From Solibacillus merdavium (GTDB taxonomy: Bacteria > Bacillota > Bacilli > Bacillales_A > Planococcaceae), in the NCBI RefSeq assembly GCF_014836935.1, contig NZ_JACSPW010000002.1:124001-188000 (forward strand): DNA of 64,000 nt, in the 5' to 3' direction. Under the pieces are notes generated by a model. That model was not told the origin of the DNA and did not search any database. It saw only the letters and a list, made by a program, of their open reading frames with translations. The translations under genes and the position numbers were made by a program. The stretch's first letter is position 1; each line of letters starts with the position of its first letter. Shown one piece after another: positions 14,230 to 27,869 of the stretch.

Positions 14230-14257
14230 AGGTATCTCTAATTTTCCTGACCTTTTT
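14209..14257. terminator. Bidirectional terminator between GNAT and carotenoid genes
   Basis: AAAAAGGTCAGGAAA pairs with TTTCCTGACCTTTTT; the loop holds the stop codon of one gene and the end of the other. Confidence 0.85.
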
Positions 14258-15686
14258 CTGCTATATATTTTTTTGCCACATTCATGCCTCCAAGTGTGAC
14301 AAGTGGAGACCCCCCACCTGGATGTACTGTCCCTCCAACAAAATATAAATTTTTCAGCTTTGCATGCCGATTACTCGGTCTAAAAAATGCAGATTTTACT
14401 GAATTGGATGCAGCTCCATACAATGCCCCTCGAAATGCATAAAATTCCTTCTCTAAATACTCGGGTGTTATTACTTTTTCCTCCACAATAGCATCTTCGA
14501 TATCAAGACCAAGGTCCTTTAACTGTATGATTATTTGTTGGCGATATTTCTGCGAATCAATTTGTAAAGTTCCATTTTGGGTTGGAGGGGCATTAACTAA
14601 AATCAGCAAATTATCTCCACTTGGTGAAATGGAAGGATCGGTATAGGAAGAATTACAAATATAAATTGTGGGATCTTCAACATAGTGATCTGAAAAGAGT
14701 GCGTCAAACTCCAATTCATAGTTTTCAGGAAAATAGACATTATGATGATGCAACCCTTCAATCCGTTTATTAAGCCCAAGCAATAAGACAAATGCTGAAC
14801 TGGATGGCTGAATATCTTTTTTAACTTCATCAAGCTCAAATAAATCACTTAATCGATCTGAATTCATAAAGACAGCATCGACTGTATGTGTATTTCCATA
14901 CTGATCGATAATACTGTGAATTTGAGTCTTTCCATATTTAACTTTTGTCACTTCACACCCTACATGAAATTTCACACCTAGCTGCTTAGCACGGGTTGTA
15001 AATGCTTGCGCAATCTTTGATGTTCCACCTTCAACGTAATCGACACCATCAACCAATTCCAAATAAGCAATCATTGCAAATGTTGCAGGCATTATGTATG
15101 GCGATGAACCAATATATGTCGCATAGCGTAAAAAACATTGAACGATAAACGGATGCTGAAAATACTTTCTTATAAATTGGTCCAAAGTTTCAAAAGGCCG
15201 TACTTTTACTAGCGCCGATAGTAATGATGGTTTCATATAGTCTCGCCAGCTCGTAAATGTTGTTTGCAAAAAATGACGCTGTGCCAAAAAGTAGATTCTT
15301 GAAATTTCCGTAATAAAAGCAGGATAATTTTTCGCGTCACTTAAAGAAATCTTTTTAATTTGCTCAATCATATATTGCTGGTCGTTGGAAAAATATAATA
15401 CTTCTCCTTTCGAACTTACATTCTTCATATGAACTCGTAAAGGGATAAAATTTAAATAATCATCCGGATCTACGCCAGTTTGTGCTAATACCTGCTGAAA
15501 GACAGGGCGCATTGTAATCGTATTTGGTCCAAAATCAAAATGATGCGTACCGAGATCTATTGAGCGCATTTTTCCGCCCAATTCTTTATTTTTTTCAAAT
15601 ACTGTAACATCCATGCCTGCATTCGCAAGTGTTATAGCTGCGGATAGCCCCCCTAGACCGCCGCCAATTACCGCTACTTTCTTCAT
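14238..15686 (-). CDS. CrtN/CrtP-type phytoene desaturase family carotenoid oxidoreductase
   Basis: 482-residue flavoprotein with the N-terminal dinucleotide fold (VIGGGLGGLSAAITLA, then EKNKELGGKM) and the C-terminal FAD loop FVGGTVHPGGGSPLVTLGG, as in CrtI/CrtN/CrtP. In C30 pathways such enzymes desaturate diapophytoene or oxidise the terminal methyl group. Being in a run with a glycosyltransferase, an acyltransferase and a CruF-like protein, a diapolycopene/diaponeurosporene oxidase role is likelier than the first desaturase. Its ATG overlaps the stop of the glycosyltransferase (ATGA), showing translational coupling. Last gene of the operon. Confidence 0.82.
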   Translation of the reverse strand: MKKVAVIGGGLGGLSAAITLANAGMDVTVFEKNKELGGKMRSIDLGTHHFDFGPNTITMRPVFQQVLAQTGVDPDDYLNFIPLRVHMKNVSSKGEVLYFSNDQQYMIEQIKKISLSDAKNYPAFITEISRIYFLAQRHFLQTTFTSWRDYMKPSLLSALVKVRPFETLDQFIRKYFQHPFIVQCFLRYATYIGSSPYIMPATFAMIAYLELVDGVDYVEGGTSKIAQAFTTRAKQLGVKFHVGCEVTKVKYGKTQIHSIIDQYGNTHTVDAVFMNSDRLSDLFELDEVKKDIQPSSSAFVLLLGLNKRIEGLHHHNVYFPENYELEFDALFSDHYVEDPTIYICNSSYTDPSISPSGDNLLILVNAPPTQNGTLQIDSQKYRQQIIIQLKDLGLDIEDAIVEEKVITPEYLEKEFYAFRGALYGAASNSVKSAFFRPSNRHAKLKNLYFVGGTVHPGGGSPLVTLGGMNVAKKYIAEKGQEN

Positions 15687-16783
15687 CCGTATTCACGTCC
15701 CTTCCAAACATACGATCGTTTCGTTTGATACAAATAAATTGAATTACACAAAATAATTAGCATTGCCAATGAAGAGAGTGGCATGAACAATGCGTAATAT
15801 AAGGGTGTCTTGCTTTTGAAGTCGGAAACCATTCTTTGAATAACAATCAAAATATACGGTATAGCATACAGCCAATTAGAAAAAACAATACTATTAATAA
15901 GAAGCACTAGCGGAAACACATAAGTCACACTATAAAAAAGGACAAACAGCACGGCATTTCTAAAAGAATAATTTAGGCCATTAAATGTATTTTTAGAAAA
16001 ACCTTGCCACGTTTCAAACGCGCTAGTGTACATCTTACATGAACTGTCTTTACTAAGATTAACTAATAACACCCGCATTCCTGATTTTTTCATCGCCCGC
16101 GCTATTTCCACATCTTCCAATAGAGAGTTTTTCACTACAAGATGACCACCCATTTTCTCATAAGCTTCTCGTTCGAAAAATAAAAATGTCCCATTGGCAG
16201 CCGTAGCAGCCGGCCATTTCGTATAATTCGCCAGAGCAACAGGCAAATGAAAATTCACAAGAAAATGCATCATCGGAAGTACAAGCCGATCCAGCCAATT
16301 AGAATACATAAAATGCGGAAACCCGGTAATTAGACCAATTTTGTTTTCCCTCATAAGTGGAACTACTTTTTCAAAGATGTGTGATGACAAGGTTACGTCT
16401 GCATCAATAAACGCTAAATATTTTCCAGTGGCTACTCGCTGTAGCTGATGACAGGCATGCACTTTCCCTACCCAATTAGACGGCAACTCCACTCCCTCTA
16501 TCACACGAAAGCGCGCATCACCTTCAATTTCCTGATATAGCATTTGTCCAGTTAAGTCGGTTGATTGATCATTATAAATGATGAACTCTAGCTGTGGATA
16601 TGTAAGTTGCTTTAGCATGGAGATGCACTGTTTTACATTTCGTTGCTCATTACGCATAGGAATAAGAATGGAAATACGATCTAGATTTTCCCCATGCCCT
16701 TTTTTAATTCGAGGTAAAAACAAGCCATTCAAAATTGTCCAAATGACAAAAATACTTAACACAATACAGTAAATAAATAGCAT
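15683..16783 (-). CDS. Glycosyltransferase family 2, CrtQ-like
   Basis: 366 residues: an N-terminal membrane segment, a GT-A domain (ILIPMRNEQRNVKQC, DQSTDLTG, and the metal-binding DAD in FIDADVTLS), and four hydrophobic segments at the C-terminus. CrtQ-type enzymes attach glucose to the carboxyl end of the carotenoid. Start taken at the ATG at 16783 because GAGGTGAC lies 8 bases before it; the GTG at 16792 is inside that site. It overlaps the next gene by 4 bases and follows the acyltransferase by 13. Confidence 0.82.
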   Translation of the reverse strand: MLFIYCIVLSIFVIWTILNGLFLPRIKKGHGENLDRISILIPMRNEQRNVKQCISMLKQLTYPQLEFIIYNDQSTDLTGQMLYQEIEGDARFRVIEGVELPSNWVGKVHACHQLQRVATGKYLAFIDADVTLSSHIFEKVVPLMRENKIGLITGFPHFMYSNWLDRLVLPMMHFLVNFHLPVALANYTKWPAATAANGTFLFFEREAYEKMGGHLVVKNSLLEDVEIARAMKKSGMRVLLVNLSKDSSCKMYTSAFETWQGFSKNTFNGLNYSFRNAVLFVLFYSVTYVFPLVLLINSIVFSNWLYAIPYILIVIQRMVSDFKSKTPLYYALFMPLSSLAMLIILCNSIYLYQTKRSYVWKGREYG

Positions 16784-16796
16784 CCTAGTCACCTCA

Positions 16797-17447
16797 TCAT
16801 ACTTTTATGAAACTTGTATAATCATTTTGAACAACATCTTTTTTCAGAGCATTTAACTGCTCCGTGACTACCTCTTCAAAATATTGTGTCATCTGTTCTC
16901 GACTCCATTTATCTTCATATTGAATTGGTTTTCCGATATCAATCCACACTTCAGCTTTTCGTTCATTCCGAAATGTATAGTAAAAAGTTATAGGAACGAC
17001 CGAAATACCTTTCATTTGCTTGGCAATCATTGCTGCACCTTGTTGAAAGTAAAGTGGCCTTTGTTCTAAATGCCATTCCTTTCCTTGAGGAAATATACAA
17101 ATATTTTTTCCATCCTGTAATAGACTTTTCGTATAGCGGATGGATTCTATAATATGTTTCGGGTTTTGTTGATTAACTGAATACGCACCTATCCATTGAA
17201 AAATTGGGAATTTCTTTATTCCCTGCTCATCTACCATGACAAATAGATTTGGAATATATCCCCTTTGTTCCAATTCAAACAAAAGCAGACCATCCCACCA
17301 GGAACTGTGATTAGCAATATATAGTGCATTGCTGGGCATAGGGAAATCCGCCTTTATACAAATATGAGCAAAACTTCGCTTCATCAATTTCTGTTGGACG
17401 AACCGAAACATTCTCATAGCAACTTTATTCTTTTTAGCTACTCGCAT
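16797..17447 (-). CDS. PlsC-type acyltransferase of the carotenoid cluster (CrtO-like role)
   Basis: 216 residues with the 1-acylglycerol-3-phosphate acyltransferase motifs: NHSSWWD (HX4D catalytic pair), then FPQGKEWH as the EGT/R-type substrate motif. In C30 glyco-carotenoid pathways an acyltransferase esterifies the sugar; membership of this operon suggests that role, though a lysophospholipid acyltransferase cannot be excluded. GAGGGGC stands three bases before the ATG. It overlaps the upstream gene by 14 bases. Confidence 0.75.
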   Translation of the reverse strand: MRVAKKNKVAMRMFRFVQQKLMKRSFAHICIKADFPMPSNALYIANHSSWWDGLLLFELEQRGYIPNLFVMVDEQGIKKFPIFQWIGAYSVNQQNPKHIIESIRYTKSLLQDGKNICIFPQGKEWHLEQRPLYFQQGAAMIAKQMKGISVVPITFYYTFRNERKAEVWIDIGKPIQYEDKWSREQMTQYFEEVVTEQLNALKKDVVQNDYTSFIKV

Positions 17448-18192
17448 ATTGCCCCTCTTTTCGAAGTGAGAATATTAAAAAGAGAAGTGCTGTCACAACT
17501 ATTGTACTGGCCAAATATATTCCATTCATTAACCCAATTAAAGCAAACATGATAATAATCAGGATATACAAAAGAACGAGTCGATCCTGCCAAACTTTAT
17601 TCACTTGTGAAACAGAAATGAATGATAGAATTATATGAATGCAAAAAGCGACAATAAACCAGCCAAAAAAGTTCGTCCACGGAATGTCATAGTATATTCC
17701 CGGCTCGTGCCATATCCAATATTGTTTTGCTTTATAGGCTACTGGATCTAATATTAAATCCATCGTAAGCGCCAAAACACCACCGAGTAGTGCTCTTAAA
17801 ATTATATTTTGCACTCCAAACTTCATGATAATAGCATGACCTGTCGCAATAACCATTACCCATGCGAAACCGATTGCAACTGGAACCCCCATAACATTCG
17901 GTGCAAAATAATTTGAATACGTATAATCACCAAACAAAAATTGACTAGATGATCCATAGTATTCAATGATGAATGTAGACACAAATATTCCAACAAATAT
18001 TAAGAAGCCCAATTTAAAGCGGAAATGAATGAGGAAATAAATTCCTCCTAATATTCCGGATGTAATAATAAATATACTATTCGACCATTCCAGCCAACTG
18101 GGCAACAAATCAAAGCCAACAAGTACTACTCCGCATATGTACCAAAAAAGAAAAAAGTAAAATATGTAATCTGCAATACGCATTTTATTCAC
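17434..18192 (-). CDS. Carotenoid biosynthesis membrane protein (DUF422/CruF-like)
   Basis: 252 residues, about seven to eight membrane segments. The region around residues 75-165 (YYGSSSQFLFGDYTYSN, PVAIGFAWVMV, MDLILDPVA, YYDIPWTNFFGWF) is the DUF422/CruF signature; CruF homologues hydrate carotenoid psi-ends. First gene of the four-gene run, with AAGGGAGTG upstream. Its presence in a C30-type cluster is known in other Bacillales, but its exact reaction there is not settled. Confidence 0.8.
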   Translation of the reverse strand: MNKMRIADYIFYFFLFWYICGVVLVGFDLLPSWLEWSNSIFIITSGILGGIYFLIHFRFKLGFLIFVGIFVSTFIIEYYGSSSQFLFGDYTYSNYFAPNVMGVPVAIGFAWVMVIATGHAIIMKFGVQNIILRALLGGVLALTMDLILDPVAYKAKQYWIWHEPGIYYDIPWTNFFGWFIVAFCIHIILSFISVSQVNKVWQDRLVLLYILIIIMFALIGLMNGIYLASTIVVTALLFLIFSLRKEGQYASS

Positions 18193-23710: not shown

Positions 23711-24391
23711 ATGATGCTAACAGAAAAACAACTTGCGAAATTAAAAAAACAGCTGATCGAACAAAAATCAGAATTAATCGGTGATGAAAATGAAAATGAA
23801 CTACTTGCCCGCGCAAGCTTACGTGATTCAACAGATGAATTATCAACAGTAGATAATCATCCGGCAGATTTAGCAACTGAGTTATACGATCGCGAAAAGG
23901 ATATGGCGCTAAAAGTCCATAGTGATGATCTATTGGTACAGGTAAATGCTGCTTTTGAAAGAATGGAGCATGGTACATATGGAGTTTGTGCAACATGCCA
24001 TGCAGAAATTCCTTATGATCGCCTTCGCGCAATACCGTATACAACATTTTGCATTGATCATAGTGAAGCAAAATCAGTACCAACCGATCGTCCAATCGAA
24101 GAAGAACTGCTTCATCCTGCTGTAGACAATTCATTTTCAGATAGAGAAGATCATGATGAACTGCAAGATAATGAAGATTCGTTCCAAATCGTTGCTCAAT
24201 ACGGAAATTCGGATACACCTGCCGATTTCGAAGGAGATTATGACCATTACAATGATTTATATAAGGATAAAGATGGTGAGGAAATGTATTCGGCATTGGA
24301 ATTCTTGCATGTCTCCAAAGAAGATCAGCTAAATGGGCAAATTTCGCAAAAGTACGCGGATGAAGCAAGCAAATATGACTATTTGGATTAA
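23711..24391 (+). CDS. yteA: YteA-family DksA/TraR-type zinc-finger sporulation protein
   Basis: 226 residues: N-terminal helical part with the hairpin ending in DNHPADLATELYDREKD, a degenerate DksA/TraR zinc finger (GVCATCHAEIPYDRL, then FCIDH), and an acidic C-terminal half with EFLHVSKEDQ. YteA is a sporulation-phase protein of unknown activity. AAAGGA is 6 bases before the ATG at 23711; TTG at 23705 and ATG at 23714 are alternatives. Divergent from RNase J, followed by its own hairpin. Confidence 0.85.
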   Translation: MMLTEKQLAKLKKQLIEQKSELIGDENENELLARASLRDSTDELSTVDNHPADLATELYDREKDMALKVHSDDLLVQVNAAFERMEHGTYGVCATCHAEIPYDRLRAIPYTTFCIDHSEAKSVPTDRPIEEELLHPAVDNSFSDREDHDELQDNEDSFQIVAQYGNSDTPADFEGDYDHYNDLYKDKDGEEMYSALEFLHVSKEDQLNGQISQKYADEASKYDYLD

Positions 24392-24481: not shown

Positions 24482-25789
24482 TTATAAATGTGTAGTCATT
24501 TTATATAACTGGTCTGCGGTACTTGCTACGTCCCTAGTTTCATGTCCAATATTACTAATGACGCCACTTAAGTCCATAATATCAGATGATACTTGTTTAA
24601 TTTGCCTTTCATTTTGATCAATCGCTTTCAAAATCTGATGAAATTTTGTTTGAGTATTAACCGAAACATCCAATCCTGAATCGACCCTTAATTGTACACC
24701 TTCAATCATATTAACCGCCGTTGTTGTTAGAGATGTGGATGTTTGGATTAAATCGGTTATATTTTCCACTGAATTTTTAGATTGCTCCGCTAATTTGCGA
24801 ACCTCCTGAGCCACAACCGCAAACCCTTTCCCATGTTCTCCAGCCCTAGCTGCTTCAATCGAGGCATTTAATGCAAGCAAATTTGTCTGATCTGCAATAT
24901 TTCTTACTAACGATACAATATTAATAATTTGCTCTGAGGATACTTTTAATTGGCCGATTAATCGACTCATTTCCATAGTACTATTTTTAATCTCCAGCAT
25001 CTCTTTCTCAAGTTGAGTTACATTTTCTTTTCCAACCATTGCGTCTTCATGAATGTGTAGCACAATCTCTACATTTGACTCGATTGTCTGACTAATTTGC
25101 GATGTATGATTGTTAACTTGTTCAATTGATTTGTTTGTTTCTTCCGTTAAATCTGCAAGGTTTTGAATAATCGAAGAAAGATTGCCCTTTAATTCCTGCT
25201 TTACAATATTATATTGTTCACTTCGAAGTTTAATATTTTCCTTTTCATATTCTTCTAAAACTATTTGCATTTCTAAATTGATTAGCTTGGAAACATTTAA
25301 ATTTATCTGTTCCCTTAGAGCAAGATCTTTTATATCTTTGCAAATCAATGTAATCATTACTTCCTGCAATTTTTGAAATGTCCCCATATACCATTTCGGG
25401 TCTAAGCCGATTTTAAAATGCATACTTGCCAGTTTTCTTTTAGCTTCAATTGTCTCATCATTAAATATCCCATCGAACATTGAAACAATATAGACATCTA
25501 GCAATTTCTTTAAGCGTTCGATTTTTGTCCGTTCCTCTATAATTTCCCTCAAGGATGATATCGCCAGGACACTTTCATAGAATACATCAGTTATAGTAGA
25601 AACGCCTTCTGCTATATAAGGCTGGTATGACTTGATTTGCCGTAAATTCTCTTCCTGAATACCTATCAATTTCATTTGCTGCTCTAATTCAGGTCTACTC
25701 GTAAATTTCATAATCGGCTCAAAATTTTGCAAATGCGCTAGTTGATCGGCTTTACCGTTGTCCGATTTTTGCTTCCACCAATTCCCCAT
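24482..25789 (-). CDS. hemAT: Globin-coupled aerotaxis chemoreceptor HemAT
   Basis: 435 residues: N-terminal globin-sensor domain (about 20-185) and C-terminal methyl-accepting signalling domain, without membrane segments. The heme-proximal His is conserved (ASMHFKIGL, residue 124) as is the distal Tyr (VFYESV, residue 71); KWYMGTFQ follows. The receptor hairpin tip (NIADQTNLLALNASIEAARA, then GEHGKGFAVVA) that binds CheA/CheW is intact. It senses O2 and steers aerotaxis. ATG at 25789 is preferred to the GTG at 25798, which lies within the GAGGTGG ribosome site. Divergent from a MerR/B12-type regulator. Confidence 0.92.
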   Translation of the reverse strand: MGNWWKQKSDNGKADQLAHLQNFEPIMKFTSRPELEQQMKLIGIQEENLRQIKSYQPYIAEGVSTITDVFYESVLAISSLREIIEERTKIERLKKLLDVYIVSMFDGIFNDETIEAKRKLASMHFKIGLDPKWYMGTFQKLQEVMITLICKDIKDLALREQINLNVSKLINLEMQIVLEEYEKENIKLRSEQYNIVKQELKGNLSSIIQNLADLTEETNKSIEQVNNHTSQISQTIESNVEIVLHIHEDAMVGKENVTQLEKEMLEIKNSTMEMSRLIGQLKVSSEQIINIVSLVRNIADQTNLLALNASIEAARAGEHGKGFAVVAQEVRKLAEQSKNSVENITDLIQTSTSLTTTAVNMIEGVQLRVDSGLDVSVNTQTKFHQILKAIDQNERQIKQVSSDIMDLSGVISNIGHETRDVASTADQLYKMTTHL

Positions 25790-25805: not shown

Positions 25806-25847
25806 TTGTATAATCTTTGTATAACATTAAAGTGTTATTATTGTCAA
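25806..25847 (-). promoter_or_regulatory. hemAT promoter overlapped by 11-bp direct repeats
   Basis: On the minus strand TTGACA (25847-25842), an 18-base spacer and TATACA (25823-25818). The -10 region coincides with two plus-strand TTGTATAA copies at 25806 and 25817, exactly 11 bases apart, with a weaker third repeat after them. CarH-type regulators bind 11-bp direct repeats over -10/-35 regions. Confidence 0.6.
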
Positions 25848-25871
25848 TTGATTTAATAAAAGCACCAAAAC

Positions 25872-25912
25872 TATACAAAGGTTGTATAAAGTTTTTAAGT
25901 TTATAGTATAAT
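25872..25912 (+). promoter_or_regulatory. Regulator promoter with TATACAA/TTGTATA dyad
   Basis: TATACAA (25872-25878) and TTGTATA (25882-25888) form a perfect dyad carrying the same core as the hemAT repeats. TTGTAT with TATAAT at 25907 (19-base spacer) is a possible promoter for the MerR-type gene, suggesting autoregulation. Confidence 0.5.
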
Positions 25913-25980: not shown

Positions 25981-26880
25981 ATGGTTTCACATTCTTCGAG
26001 TTGGCAGTATAACATAACGCAAGTTTCTGAAATTACACAGCTATCTAAACAAGTTATACGAAAATGGGAAGAGCGTTACCAATTAGTGCAGCCAAAACGT
26101 TTGGAGAACGGGCACCGTGTCTATTCTGAAGACGACCTTCAGCAAATTTTAAAAGTGCGCAACCTTTCATTGCAAGGCTATTCCATTAAACAGGCGGTAT
26201 TAATAATTCGTCAGCAACAGCTAAATAGTGATACTTTGCCCGTTAATACGGAAGAAGAAATGAATGACTATACAAAATACTTATTGCATTATGGACAGAC
26301 GTGCAATGAGTTGGAATTAAATCGAATTCTCCAGCAAGCTACACATATATTAGGCTTGGAAAAATTTCTGTCCATTGTTGTTATCCCATTTCTAAAAGAG
26401 GTCGGTAATCGATGGGAGAACCAAGAGTGGACAGAGCATCAGGAATCGGTTTCCACAATGGTTATACGGGATTATTTAGTACAAATAAGAAGAAATTATT
26501 ATTGCCATGAGGATGCACCACTTCTAATGTGTGCATGCTTGCCTGGAGAATACCATGAAGTGCCTCTTCATATTTTAATGCTACAGGCAATGATAAATGG
26601 TTGGCGCTCCTTTCTTGTCGGAAGCTCTCCTGCAATGGGTACAATAGAATCTCTAGTGACACAATTACAACCGAAAGTCGTTCTCCTCTCTGCAATTACT
26701 ACAATACCGTTTGAGCTTCATCCGGATGTTTTACAGAGGTTAGATGAATTTGCAGCAAATCATCCTTCAATCCGGTTCTATATAGGCGGAGCAGGTTCAC
26801 TTGAGTATTTAAAAAGTAATACGACTATTTCGATAGCGGTCGCTACGAATATCGAAGAAATACTGAAGGGAGAAAAATAA
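25981..26880 (+). CDS. MerR-type regulator with B12-binding (CarH/LitR-like) domain
   Basis: 299 residues: MerR winged helix at 10-80 (TQLSKQVIRKWEERY, NGHRVYSEDDL), a four-helix cap at about 95-175, and a Rossmann B12-binding domain at 180-299. The cap has the Trp of the CarH motif (GNRW, residue 145) but where CarH has Glu-His this aligns to Glu-Ser. The lower ligand loop reads GEYHEVP, keeping the His (192) of ExHxxG but with Pro for Gly. So cobalamin binding, perhaps light sensing, is plausible but unproven. AAAGGAGG precedes the ATG. Divergent from hemAT with shared operator-like repeats. Confidence 0.82.
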   Translation: MVSHSSSWQYNITQVSEITQLSKQVIRKWEERYQLVQPKRLENGHRVYSEDDLQQILKVRNLSLQGYSIKQAVLIIRQQQLNSDTLPVNTEEEMNDYTKYLLHYGQTCNELELNRILQQATHILGLEKFLSIVVIPFLKEVGNRWENQEWTEHQESVSTMVIRDYLVQIRRNYYCHEDAPLLMCACLPGEYHEVPLHILMLQAMINGWRSFLVGSSPAMGTIESLVTQLQPKVVLLSAITTIPFELHPDVLQRLDEFAANHPSIRFYIGGAGSLEYLKSNTTISIAVATNIEEILKGEK

Positions 26881-26957: not shown

Positions 26958-27869
26958 TTACTCTTTCGGACTTAAATCTTCAATTGAATCAATGTCTACA
27001 TAAGAAGGTACAACGAATCCATTTTGTGTACCCTCCAAGTTTTCACCTAAATCAACAATCTCATCTTTATGTTTCTCATAGAATGCATTGTGAGTTGATG
27101 GTAACCATGGTGCTACAGTAACATCCCCTTCACCTGTTGCAATTGCTTGGAACATAATTGCAGGATCAACGGGTGTAACTTCAACATTATAACCTAATCC
27201 TTCAAGGACAAGTTTGACTACACTACTTGATGCAAATTCAGAATCCCAAGGAGTTGAAATGACTTTAACCTTCTCACCATCAGCCTGGGCGATATCTTTT
27301 GTCCATTCATTTACTTTTTCTTCGTTGTTCTCAATCCAAAGAGCTGCAGCTGCATCAAAATCACCACTATTTTGTGCATCATACATCACTTGTTCCATAT
27401 CTTCCGGCTCCCAATAGAAGCGATCCATTACTGTATACACATCTGGTAAGTCTTCTTCCAACCCTTTTCTTGCAAGTGTTTGAATATTTTCTGATCCACC
27501 TAAAACACCTTTAGGATCTTCAAGGATTTTTAAATCATAAGCCGAGAATTTCCAGTGCGGTGTCCAGCCTGTCACAATGACTGGCTCTTCATTACGAATT
27601 GCCTGTTCTAAAGTTCCAAGCATTCCTGCAGTTGAACTTTCCTGCAATGTCCATCCTTCCAGATTTTCATATTCATCTAATACATCTTGTGATAGACCTG
27701 TCAATCCAGCGCCGGGTTCAACTCCGACTATCGTATAGTCTACTTGTTCACTAAGGTTATTGTTATCTCCGTTTTCACTACTGCTACCGCTAGTATCATC
27801 TCCGCACGCAGCCAAAAGAAGTGCTGAAGAAACCCCTAAAGTCATCCCAAAGGTTTTAAATTTTTTCAT
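26958..27869 (-). CDS. Glycine betaine ABC transporter substrate-binding lipoprotein (OpuAC-like)
   Basis: 303 residues, lipoprotein signal with LAACG, a low-complexity Ser/Gly/Asn linker, then the OpuAC fold: VGVEPGAGL, VIVTGWTPHWKFSAYDLK (Trp residues of the aromatic cage for trimethylammonium groups), DPKG, and VTVAPWLPSTHNAFY. The ATPase and permease genes are not adjacent, so it is an orphan binding protein or belongs to a transporter elsewhere. The ATG at 27869 stands 12 bases after GGAG; TTG codons at 27887 and 27881 are alternatives. Confidence 0.85.
   Translation of the reverse strand: MKKFKTFGMTLGVSSALLLAACGDDTSGSSSENGDNNNLSEQVDYTIVGVEPGAGLTGLSQDVLDEYENLEGWTLQESSTAGMLGTLEQAIRNEEPVIVTGWTPHWKFSAYDLKILEDPKGVLGGSENIQTLARKGLEEDLPDVYTVMDRFYWEPEDMEQVMYDAQNSGDFDAAAALWIENNEEKVNEWTKDIAQADGEKVKVISTPWDSEFASSSVVKLVLEGLGYNVEVTPVDPAIMFQAIATGEGDVTVAPWLPSTHNAFYEKHKDEIVDLGENLEGTQNGFVVPSYVDIDSIEDLSPKE

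What the first reader, a model, noticed from the sequence alone, without database searches (positions are those of the whole stretch)
25806..25912. CarH-like operator between HemAT and a B12-type MerR regulator
TTGTATAA occurs twice exactly 11 bases apart over the -10 of hemAT, and TATACAA/TTGTATA forms a dyad at the regulator's own promoter. CarH-type photoreceptors bind 11-bp direct repeats. The divergent protein keeps Trp145 and His192 of the cobalamin site but has Ser where CarH has the upper His, and Pro in the ExHxxG loop. This would link oxygen taxis to a B12- or light-dependent switch, or to a B12-free offshoot.
Basis: partly seen in the sequence, partly recalled or inferred. Interest (0 to 1): 0.62.

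Follow-up and report, generated by a model that had tools for sequence, protein, structure and literature searches.

The report
CarH-type switch over oxygen-taxis gene
A bacterial vitamin-B12-type gene switch, of the kind known for turning on carotenoid pigments in light, appears to have a second job in this bacterial family, controlling the oxygen-seeking receptor HemAT; the DNA sites and gene pairings are clear, but what the switch senses still has to be measured.

Summary
TTGTATAA lies at 25806-25813 and 25817-25824, 11 bp apart. On hemAT's strand this is TATACAAAGATTATACA, two CarH-type 11-bp direct repeats (TnnACA) over the -10, unique in the genome. With one mismatch allowed, the family operator is at three places in this genome: hemAT, a crtI-family desaturase, and between a paralogous regulator and an MMPL transporter. 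Of 132 HemATs listed in 261 family genomes, the paired repeats lie upstream of 30 of 34 close ones and 4 of 98 distant ones, and those 4 are beside the regulator; of the 27 within 3 kb of a regulator, 26 have them. The CarH-like operator is thus supported by comparison; binding is untested. Corrections: the 'dyad' is a decayed direct repeat, and the residue changes belong to the whole clade. In 52 of 52 regulators TtCarH Trp131, Glu141 and lower-ligand His177 are kept, His142 in none, His132 in one. This favours a cobalamin-binding repressor with altered upper-face chemistry over a B12-free one. In relatives a c-di-GMP phosphodiesterase, chemoreceptors and crtI sit at or beside such sites. A new variant of a known kind; its signal is open.

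The parts
25807..25823 (-). hemAT operator: two CarH-type 11-bp direct repeats TATACAAAGAT|TATACA over the -10
   Evidence: 17 of 17 bases kept in S. faecavium
25872..25888 (+). second site, one direct repeat plus one decayed repeat (TATACAAAGGT|TGTATA), over the likely -35 of the regulator; full repeat in G004, G007, G008, G012
   Evidence: 15 of 17 bases kept in S. faecavium
25842..25847 (-). hemAT -35 TTGACA
   Evidence: sequence
25819..25824 (-). hemAT -10-like TTATAC, 17 bp from -35, inside the operator
   Evidence: sequence
25907..25912 (+). regulator -10 TATAAT
   Evidence: sequence
24482..25789 (-). hemAT: protoglobin + MCP signalling domain
   Evidence: Pfam PF11563 2.9e-40 and PF00015 6.1e-38
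25981..26880 (+). CarH-like regulator: MerR HTH + 4-helix + B12-binding Rossmann domain, Wx9ES in place of Wx9EH

Best explanation
The intergenic region is a two-sided operator for the divergently encoded CarH-like regulator. The regulator (and possibly its paralogue elsewhere in the genome) binds pairs of 11-bp direct repeats TRTACA-N5-TnnACA: one pair covers the hemAT -10, the second, partly decayed, lies at the regulator's own promoter. By position it should repress hemAT and itself. It most likely still binds a cobalamin through the invariant lower His, and the cobalamin state (B12 supply, light, or Co redox/oxygen) sets DNA binding. The pocket lacks TtCarH His132 and His142, so classical TtCarH photodissociation by bis-His ligation is not expected. 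Shown here: the sites, their conservation, their co-occurrence with the regulator, a shared operator with crtI in the same genome, and residue conservation. Inferred: binding, repression, cobalamin and the signal.
For: In the own genome the operator (<=1 mismatch) is at 3 places, 0 with the reversed control pattern: hemAT, crtI-family gene, and between paralogue regulator and MMPL. In 61 genomes 45 sites against 5 control; Solibacillus with a regulator 12 of 12 have sites, without it 0 of 4. HemAT upstreams: 30 of 34 close, 4 of 98 distant (shuffles of the 34: mean 0.19, max 2). HemATs within 3 kb of a regulator 26 of 27; regulator elsewhere 7 of 40; no listed regulator 1 of 65. Five Solibacillus HemATs (G004, G007, G008, G011, G012) have the repeats although the regulator lies elsewhere in the genome. 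In genera g3, g5 and g11 the second repeat is TTGACA, which looks like the -35, in 14 of the 18 HemATs with a pair; CarH operators are described with the -35 inside a repeat (PMC9304148 passages). L. capsici crtI has four tandem TnnACA repeats upstream. Trp131, Glu141 and His177 52 of 52. The genome has 6 cobalamin riboswitches and 2 adenosyltransferase matches.
Against: No binding or expression data. hemAT operators mostly have two repeats (a further TnnACA 11 bp on in 2 of 45 sites), fewer than the three or four of TtCarH and CarHBm. The NCBIfam CarH model scores 104.5 bits, far below its 400 cut-off. Four close HemATs (G226, G021, a second one of G113, G112) lack the pair, G226 although linked. 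Upper-face residues important in TtCarH are missing, so the signal is unknown. The close/distant border (E 1e-34) was set after I had seen the listing and a first pass. Sequences are related, so the Fisher p (1.5e-14 on 90 rows) overstates independence.
Confidence: 0.72

Rival explanations
1. Classical CarH: adenosylcobalamin-bound repressor in the dark, released by light, so hemAT is light-induced.
For: Same fold and operator class; shared operator with crtI in the genome; invariant lower His, Trp, Glu. CtMerR responds to green light with Arg at the His132 place (PMC11796333 passages). An earlier report, cited in PMC10442372, had TtCarH H132A still disassembling in light.
Against: The proposed light signature is GxxW, EH, GxxH, GxxxP; the clade has GxxW in 52 of 52, EH in 0 of 52, GxxH in 25 of 52, and the window protein has GSSPA for GxxxP. 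PMC10442372 finds that most H132A TtCarH stays tetrameric in light (passages).
Confidence: 0.3
2. B12-free regulator that kept the fold, like CarA in mechanism or class II LitR, driven by another partner or by expression level.
For: His142 and His132 lost; both Pfam B12-binding scores fall below their gathering cut-offs; CarA acts without B12 (PMC9304148); window protein departs from the published motif after the loop (SxI for SxT/V, 29 residues to GG instead of 22-27).
Against: The lower-ligand His, Trp131, Glu141 and GG are invariant in 52 of 52, hard to explain without a bound corrinoid.
Confidence: 0.2
3. Repeats are bound by some other factor or are AT-rich -10 debris; the regulator controls only other genes.
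For: TATACA/TATAAT-like words are common in AT-rich promoters; the loose motif is matched in 30 of 100 shuffles of the window.
Against: Sites follow the regulator through genomes and are absent without it in Solibacillus; the operator is also at crtI and at regulator promoters.
Confidence: 0.08

Closest known systems
CarH / class I LitR (T. thermophilus, B. megaterium, M. xanthus)
   Same: MerR HTH + cobalamin-type domain (PDB 3whp/5c8d best sequence hits), R-x-W-E-x-R-Y recognition helix, 11-bp TnnACA direct repeats over promoters, crtI beside the regulator in relatives
   Different: His142 in 0 of 52, His132 in 1 of 52; mostly two-repeat operators at hemAT; target is an oxygen-taxis receptor
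CarA of Myxococcus
   Same: CarH relative with an altered Wx9EH motif
   Different: CarA lost the Trp and kept EH (PMC9304148 passages); here Trp is kept and the His of EH is lost
Class II LitR (Pseudomonas)
   Same: T(G/A)TACA half-site (PMC9758184 passages)
   Different: Class II has only the 4-helix part and N12-spaced sites; here the Rossmann part and N5 direct repeats are present
CtMerR
   Same: Lacks the His132 equivalent (Arg) yet is a tetramer that monomerises in light (PMC11796333 passages)
   Different: CtMerR keeps EH
HemAT of Bacillus
   Same: Protoglobin-MCP (the Bacillus protein itself is recalled)
   Different: Control of hemAT by a CarH/LitR-type regulator was not seen in the listings

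Membership tests
CarH / class I LitR | MerR HTH + 4-helix bundle + B12 Rossmann architecture | tested here: met
   a low-confidence model (pLDDT 68.1) still best matches 5c8d, E 2.6e-10, TM 0.39
CarH / class I LitR | Intact Wx9EH motif | tested here: not met
   W and E kept, H is A 35, S 15, T 1, K 1 of 52
CarH / class I LitR | Lower axial His in D/ExHx2G/P | tested here: met
   His in 52 of 52; P at the G/P place in 50 of 52
CarH / class I LitR | Rest of the motif, x41 SxT/V x22-27 GG | tested here: inconclusive
   GG in 52 of 52 but 29 residues after SxI in the window protein; the SxT/V place is T or V in 14 of 52
CarH / class I LitR | Light-state upper ligand His132 | tested here: not met
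   1 of 52; also variable among proven photoreceptors
CarH / class I LitR | Operators of tandem 11-bp nnnnTnnACAn repeats over promoter elements | tested here: met
   as sequence only; two repeats at hemAT, four at L. capsici crtI
CarH / class I LitR | NCBIfam NF052513 above cut-off | tested here: not met
   104.5 of 400 bits
CarH / class I LitR | AdoCbl-dependent dark binding released by light | not testable with these tools
   needs protein
Light-responsive CBD signature (GxxW, EH, GxxH, GxxxP) | All four motifs | tested here: not met
   window: GNRW yes, ES no, GEYH yes, GSSPA no
Class II LitR | Lacks Rossmann B12 domain | tested here: not met
   Rossmann part present

The most novel reading that the evidence does not exclude
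The family of this genome (Solibacillus, Lysinibacillus and kin) carries a new class of cobalamin regulators, with the adenosyl-face His replaced by Ala/Ser, that form one regulon joining photoprotection (crtI), oxygen taxis (HemAT and other chemoreceptors) and c-di-GMP turnover (an EAL phosphodiesterase). The cobalamin would act as a light- and/or oxygen-redox sensor that sets where the cell swims and whether it stays motile.
Probability: 0.35. Interest if true: 0.78.

Novelty: new variant of a known kind. Interest (0 to 1): 0.6.

Why it matters
LitR/CarH proteins are described as mainly involved in light-induced carotenoid production (PMC9758184 passages). PMC10442372 (passages) argues that CarH chemistry integrates light and oxygen; here CarH-type sites sit on an oxygen-taxis receptor in 34 of the 100 family genomes with a listed HemAT. 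It also offers a natural set of proteins lacking His142/His132 to test which residues make a cobalamin domain a photoreceptor.

Tried and rejected
Local chance test: the loose repeat motif alone in the window is not significant, so it was dropped as evidence. The 'dyad' reading was rejected in favour of a decayed direct repeat. Structure prediction from 3 sequences gave a weak model; no pocket argument is drawn from it. The paper search for HemAT and MerR matched words starting 'hemat' and 'merr' and was useless. A first pass of the HemAT upstream script missed 26 of 90 loci because little coding DNA was included; one search placed starts coordinates instead. The shuffles keep only base composition, not dinucleotides. 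In the tree (quick method, no bootstrap) the partial L024 was left out and long branches are flagged, so only the grouping of the 51 family rows (SH-aLRT 99) is used. Of the 45 operator sites, four that I looked at (L070, L075, L091, L092) lie in or beside unrelated genes and may be chance; loci were returned for only part of the 45. In the own genome the looser TRTACAN5TRTACA has six places: the three discussed and three that lie inside long reading frames (L058, L060, L061), taken as chance.

Full report
What is there. hemAT (24482-25789, minus; protoglobin plus MCP signalling domain) and a 299-aa MerR-type regulator (25981-26880, plus) are divergent. The window lies in a Solibacillus-like genome (nearest named relative S. 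faecavium, regulator 89% identical). TTGTATAA stands at 25806 and 25817. Read on hemAT's strand this is TATACAAAGATTATACA (25823-25807), two 11-bp repeats of the form TnnACA, the CarH operator unit nnnnTnnACAn (PMC9304148, passages). They cover the likely hemAT -10 (TTGACA, 17 bp, TTATAC). Against S. faecavium the repeat pair is 17 of 17 identical, the second site 15 of 17, the rest of the gap 118 of 157.

Is it more than chance? TTGTATAAN3TTGTATAA is unique in the genome. The operator TRTACAAACATTRTACA with one mismatch is found at three places in the genome and at none with the reversed control pattern: at hemAT; about 200 bp upstream of a crtI-family desaturase (C11; TIGR02734 470.9 bits against a cut-off of 238.1); and between a second regulator of the same family and an MMPL transporter (C1). 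In 61 genomes there are 45 sites and 5 control matches. In Solibacillus, 12 of 12 genomes with a regulator have sites and 0 of 4 without.

Conservation with hemAT. The HemAT globin domain was searched in 261 family genomes; 132 matches in 100 genomes were listed (candidates beyond a per-genome cap were not scored) and the upstream DNA of the 132 was examined, one of them only in part. A pair TRTACA-N5-TnnACA (either order, either strand, within about 250 bp) lies upstream of 30 of 34 HemATs with E below 1e-34 and 4 of 98 others. The border was set after seeing the listing. Base-composition shuffles gave a mean of 0.19 (max 2) for the 34 and 0.35 (max 3) for the 56 others. The 4 others (G221, G223, G255, G256) are 746-786 bp from a regulator. 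By linkage, over all 132: within 3 kb of a regulator 26 of 27, regulator elsewhere in the genome 7 of 40, no regulator at E<=1e-60 1 of 65. That one (G029) has a broken regulator remnant beside it and a more diverged regulator elsewhere (E 2.5e-48). Against the reading: G226 (linked, no pair) and G021, G112 and a second HemAT of G113 (close, no pair). Five Solibacillus HemATs without a regulator beside them keep the repeats (G004, G007, G008, G011, G012). In G012 the locus is syntenic: the genes on both sides match the window's 26961-27869 (72%) and 23870-24388 (82%), but the regulator's place is taken by an EAL phosphodiesterase. In genera g3, g5 and g11 the second repeat is TTGACA, apparently the -35, in 14 of 18 HemATs with a pair (TATACAAACATTTGACA and variants). 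All this fits a repressor.

The second site. The 'dyad' is TATACA-N5-TGTATA. At the aligned place G004, G007, G008 and G012 have a full repeat pair, on the opposite strand from the hemAT pair. The regulator's TATAAT is at 25907-25912, and the decayed repeat overlaps its likely -35, so autoregulation is probable (inference).

The regulator. Best solved relatives are TtCarH (1e-18) and CtMerR. Among 52 distinct family regulators that I aligned (one search lists 96 matches in 92 of 261 genomes at E<=1e-60), TtCarH Trp131, Glu141 and His177 are 52 of 52, His142 0 of 52 (A 35, S 15, T 1, K 1), His132 1 of 52 (E 26, C 15, rest mixed). Four relatives outside the family were aligned too: L027, L028 and L029 have EH (L029 lacks the Trp) and L030 aligns poorly there. 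The family regulators (51 rows, one partial left out) group together (SH-aLRT 99, quick tree). His132 is the light-state ligand in TtCarH (PMC4557120, passages). PMC10442372 (passages) finds that its removal keeps most TtCarH tetrameric in light, against an earlier report that it cites; CtMerR works with Arg there (PMC11796333, passages). The light signature GxxW, EH, GxxH, GxxxP is half met by the window protein. Invariance of the lower His argues that a corrinoid is still bound, though the stretch from SxT/V to GG departs from the published spacing. The genome has 6 cobalamin riboswitches and 2 adenosyltransferase matches, so adenosylcobalamin is probably available.

The wider regulon. Where the regulator is not beside hemAT it is, in the loci I read, often beside a crtI-like gene (L033, L040, L041, L042, L045, L047), an MMPL transporter, or a small membrane protein with ABC-transporter genes. 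The L. capsici crtI promoter has four tandem TnnACA repeats and the gene is followed by a PAS-MCP gene. An EAL phosphodiesterase lies within 3 kb of the regulator or of a repeat-bearing HemAT in 15 of 65 rows tested: G004, G007, G008, G012, G029, G083, G110, G113, G115, G226, G228, G229, G258, G260, G282. 119 of 261 genomes have this EAL gene at E<=1e-50; the window's own does not, so this arm does not apply to it. A 4HB-HAMP MCP in G033 also has the operator close upstream.

Mechanism and limits. Most likely: repression of hemAT and self by a cobalamin-loaded CarH-like oligomer on repeat pairs, relieved by a change of cobalamin state. Shown: sites, conservation, co-occurrence, residues. Inferred: binding, repression, ligand, signal. 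Papers: HemAT with CarH 0 papers; HemAT with LitR 1, unrelated; CarH, chemotaxis and MerR 3; HemAT, transcriptional regulator, promoter and aerotaxis 3; cobalamin, HemAT, light and c-di-GMP, 8 listed of 81. None of the listed titles and abstract starts links them; I read none of these further, and subscription journals are mostly not held. The papers cited here were seen as passages, none whole.

Noticed in passing
G000:C1:45358-46203 (L034 6344-7225): Second regulator of the same clade in the same genome, divergent from an MMPL transporter, with Cys at the His132 place and the perfect operator TATACAAACATTGTACA between them.
   Followed up: partly
G000:C11:454949-454965 and 455164-456681 (L123): crtI-family desaturase with the same operator about 200 bp upstream; no other carotenoid gene noticed by eye in the 16 kb fetched.
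   Followed up: partly
window 14238-18192: Carotenoid-type gene run: CrtI/CrtN-like desaturase (29% to the crtI query), then glycosyltransferase-like, acyltransferase-like and membrane proteins judged by eye; no paired repeats there.
   Followed up: no
L261 1549-2541; G004, G007, G008, G012: An EAL phosphodiesterase lies divergent from hemAT in other Solibacillus, in G012 at the syntenic locus, with the operator between them.
   Followed up: partly
G029:C1:2143730-2144351: Broken regulator remnant between an EAL gene and hemAT; the operator at hemAT is present.
   Followed up: no
L033 5908-6711: Soluble PAS-MCP directly downstream of crtI under a four-repeat operator in Lysinibacillus capsici.
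   Followed up: no
L072 and L073, about 1500: Repeat-like sites upstream of a DUF4397 protein (Pfam on L072; L073 by likeness) in genus g2.
   Followed up: no
L044 3719-4365, L046 7279-7861: Tandem cobalamin riboswitches near the MMPL-linked paralogous regulator in two of the four such loci scanned (L034, L043, L044, L046).
   Followed up: no
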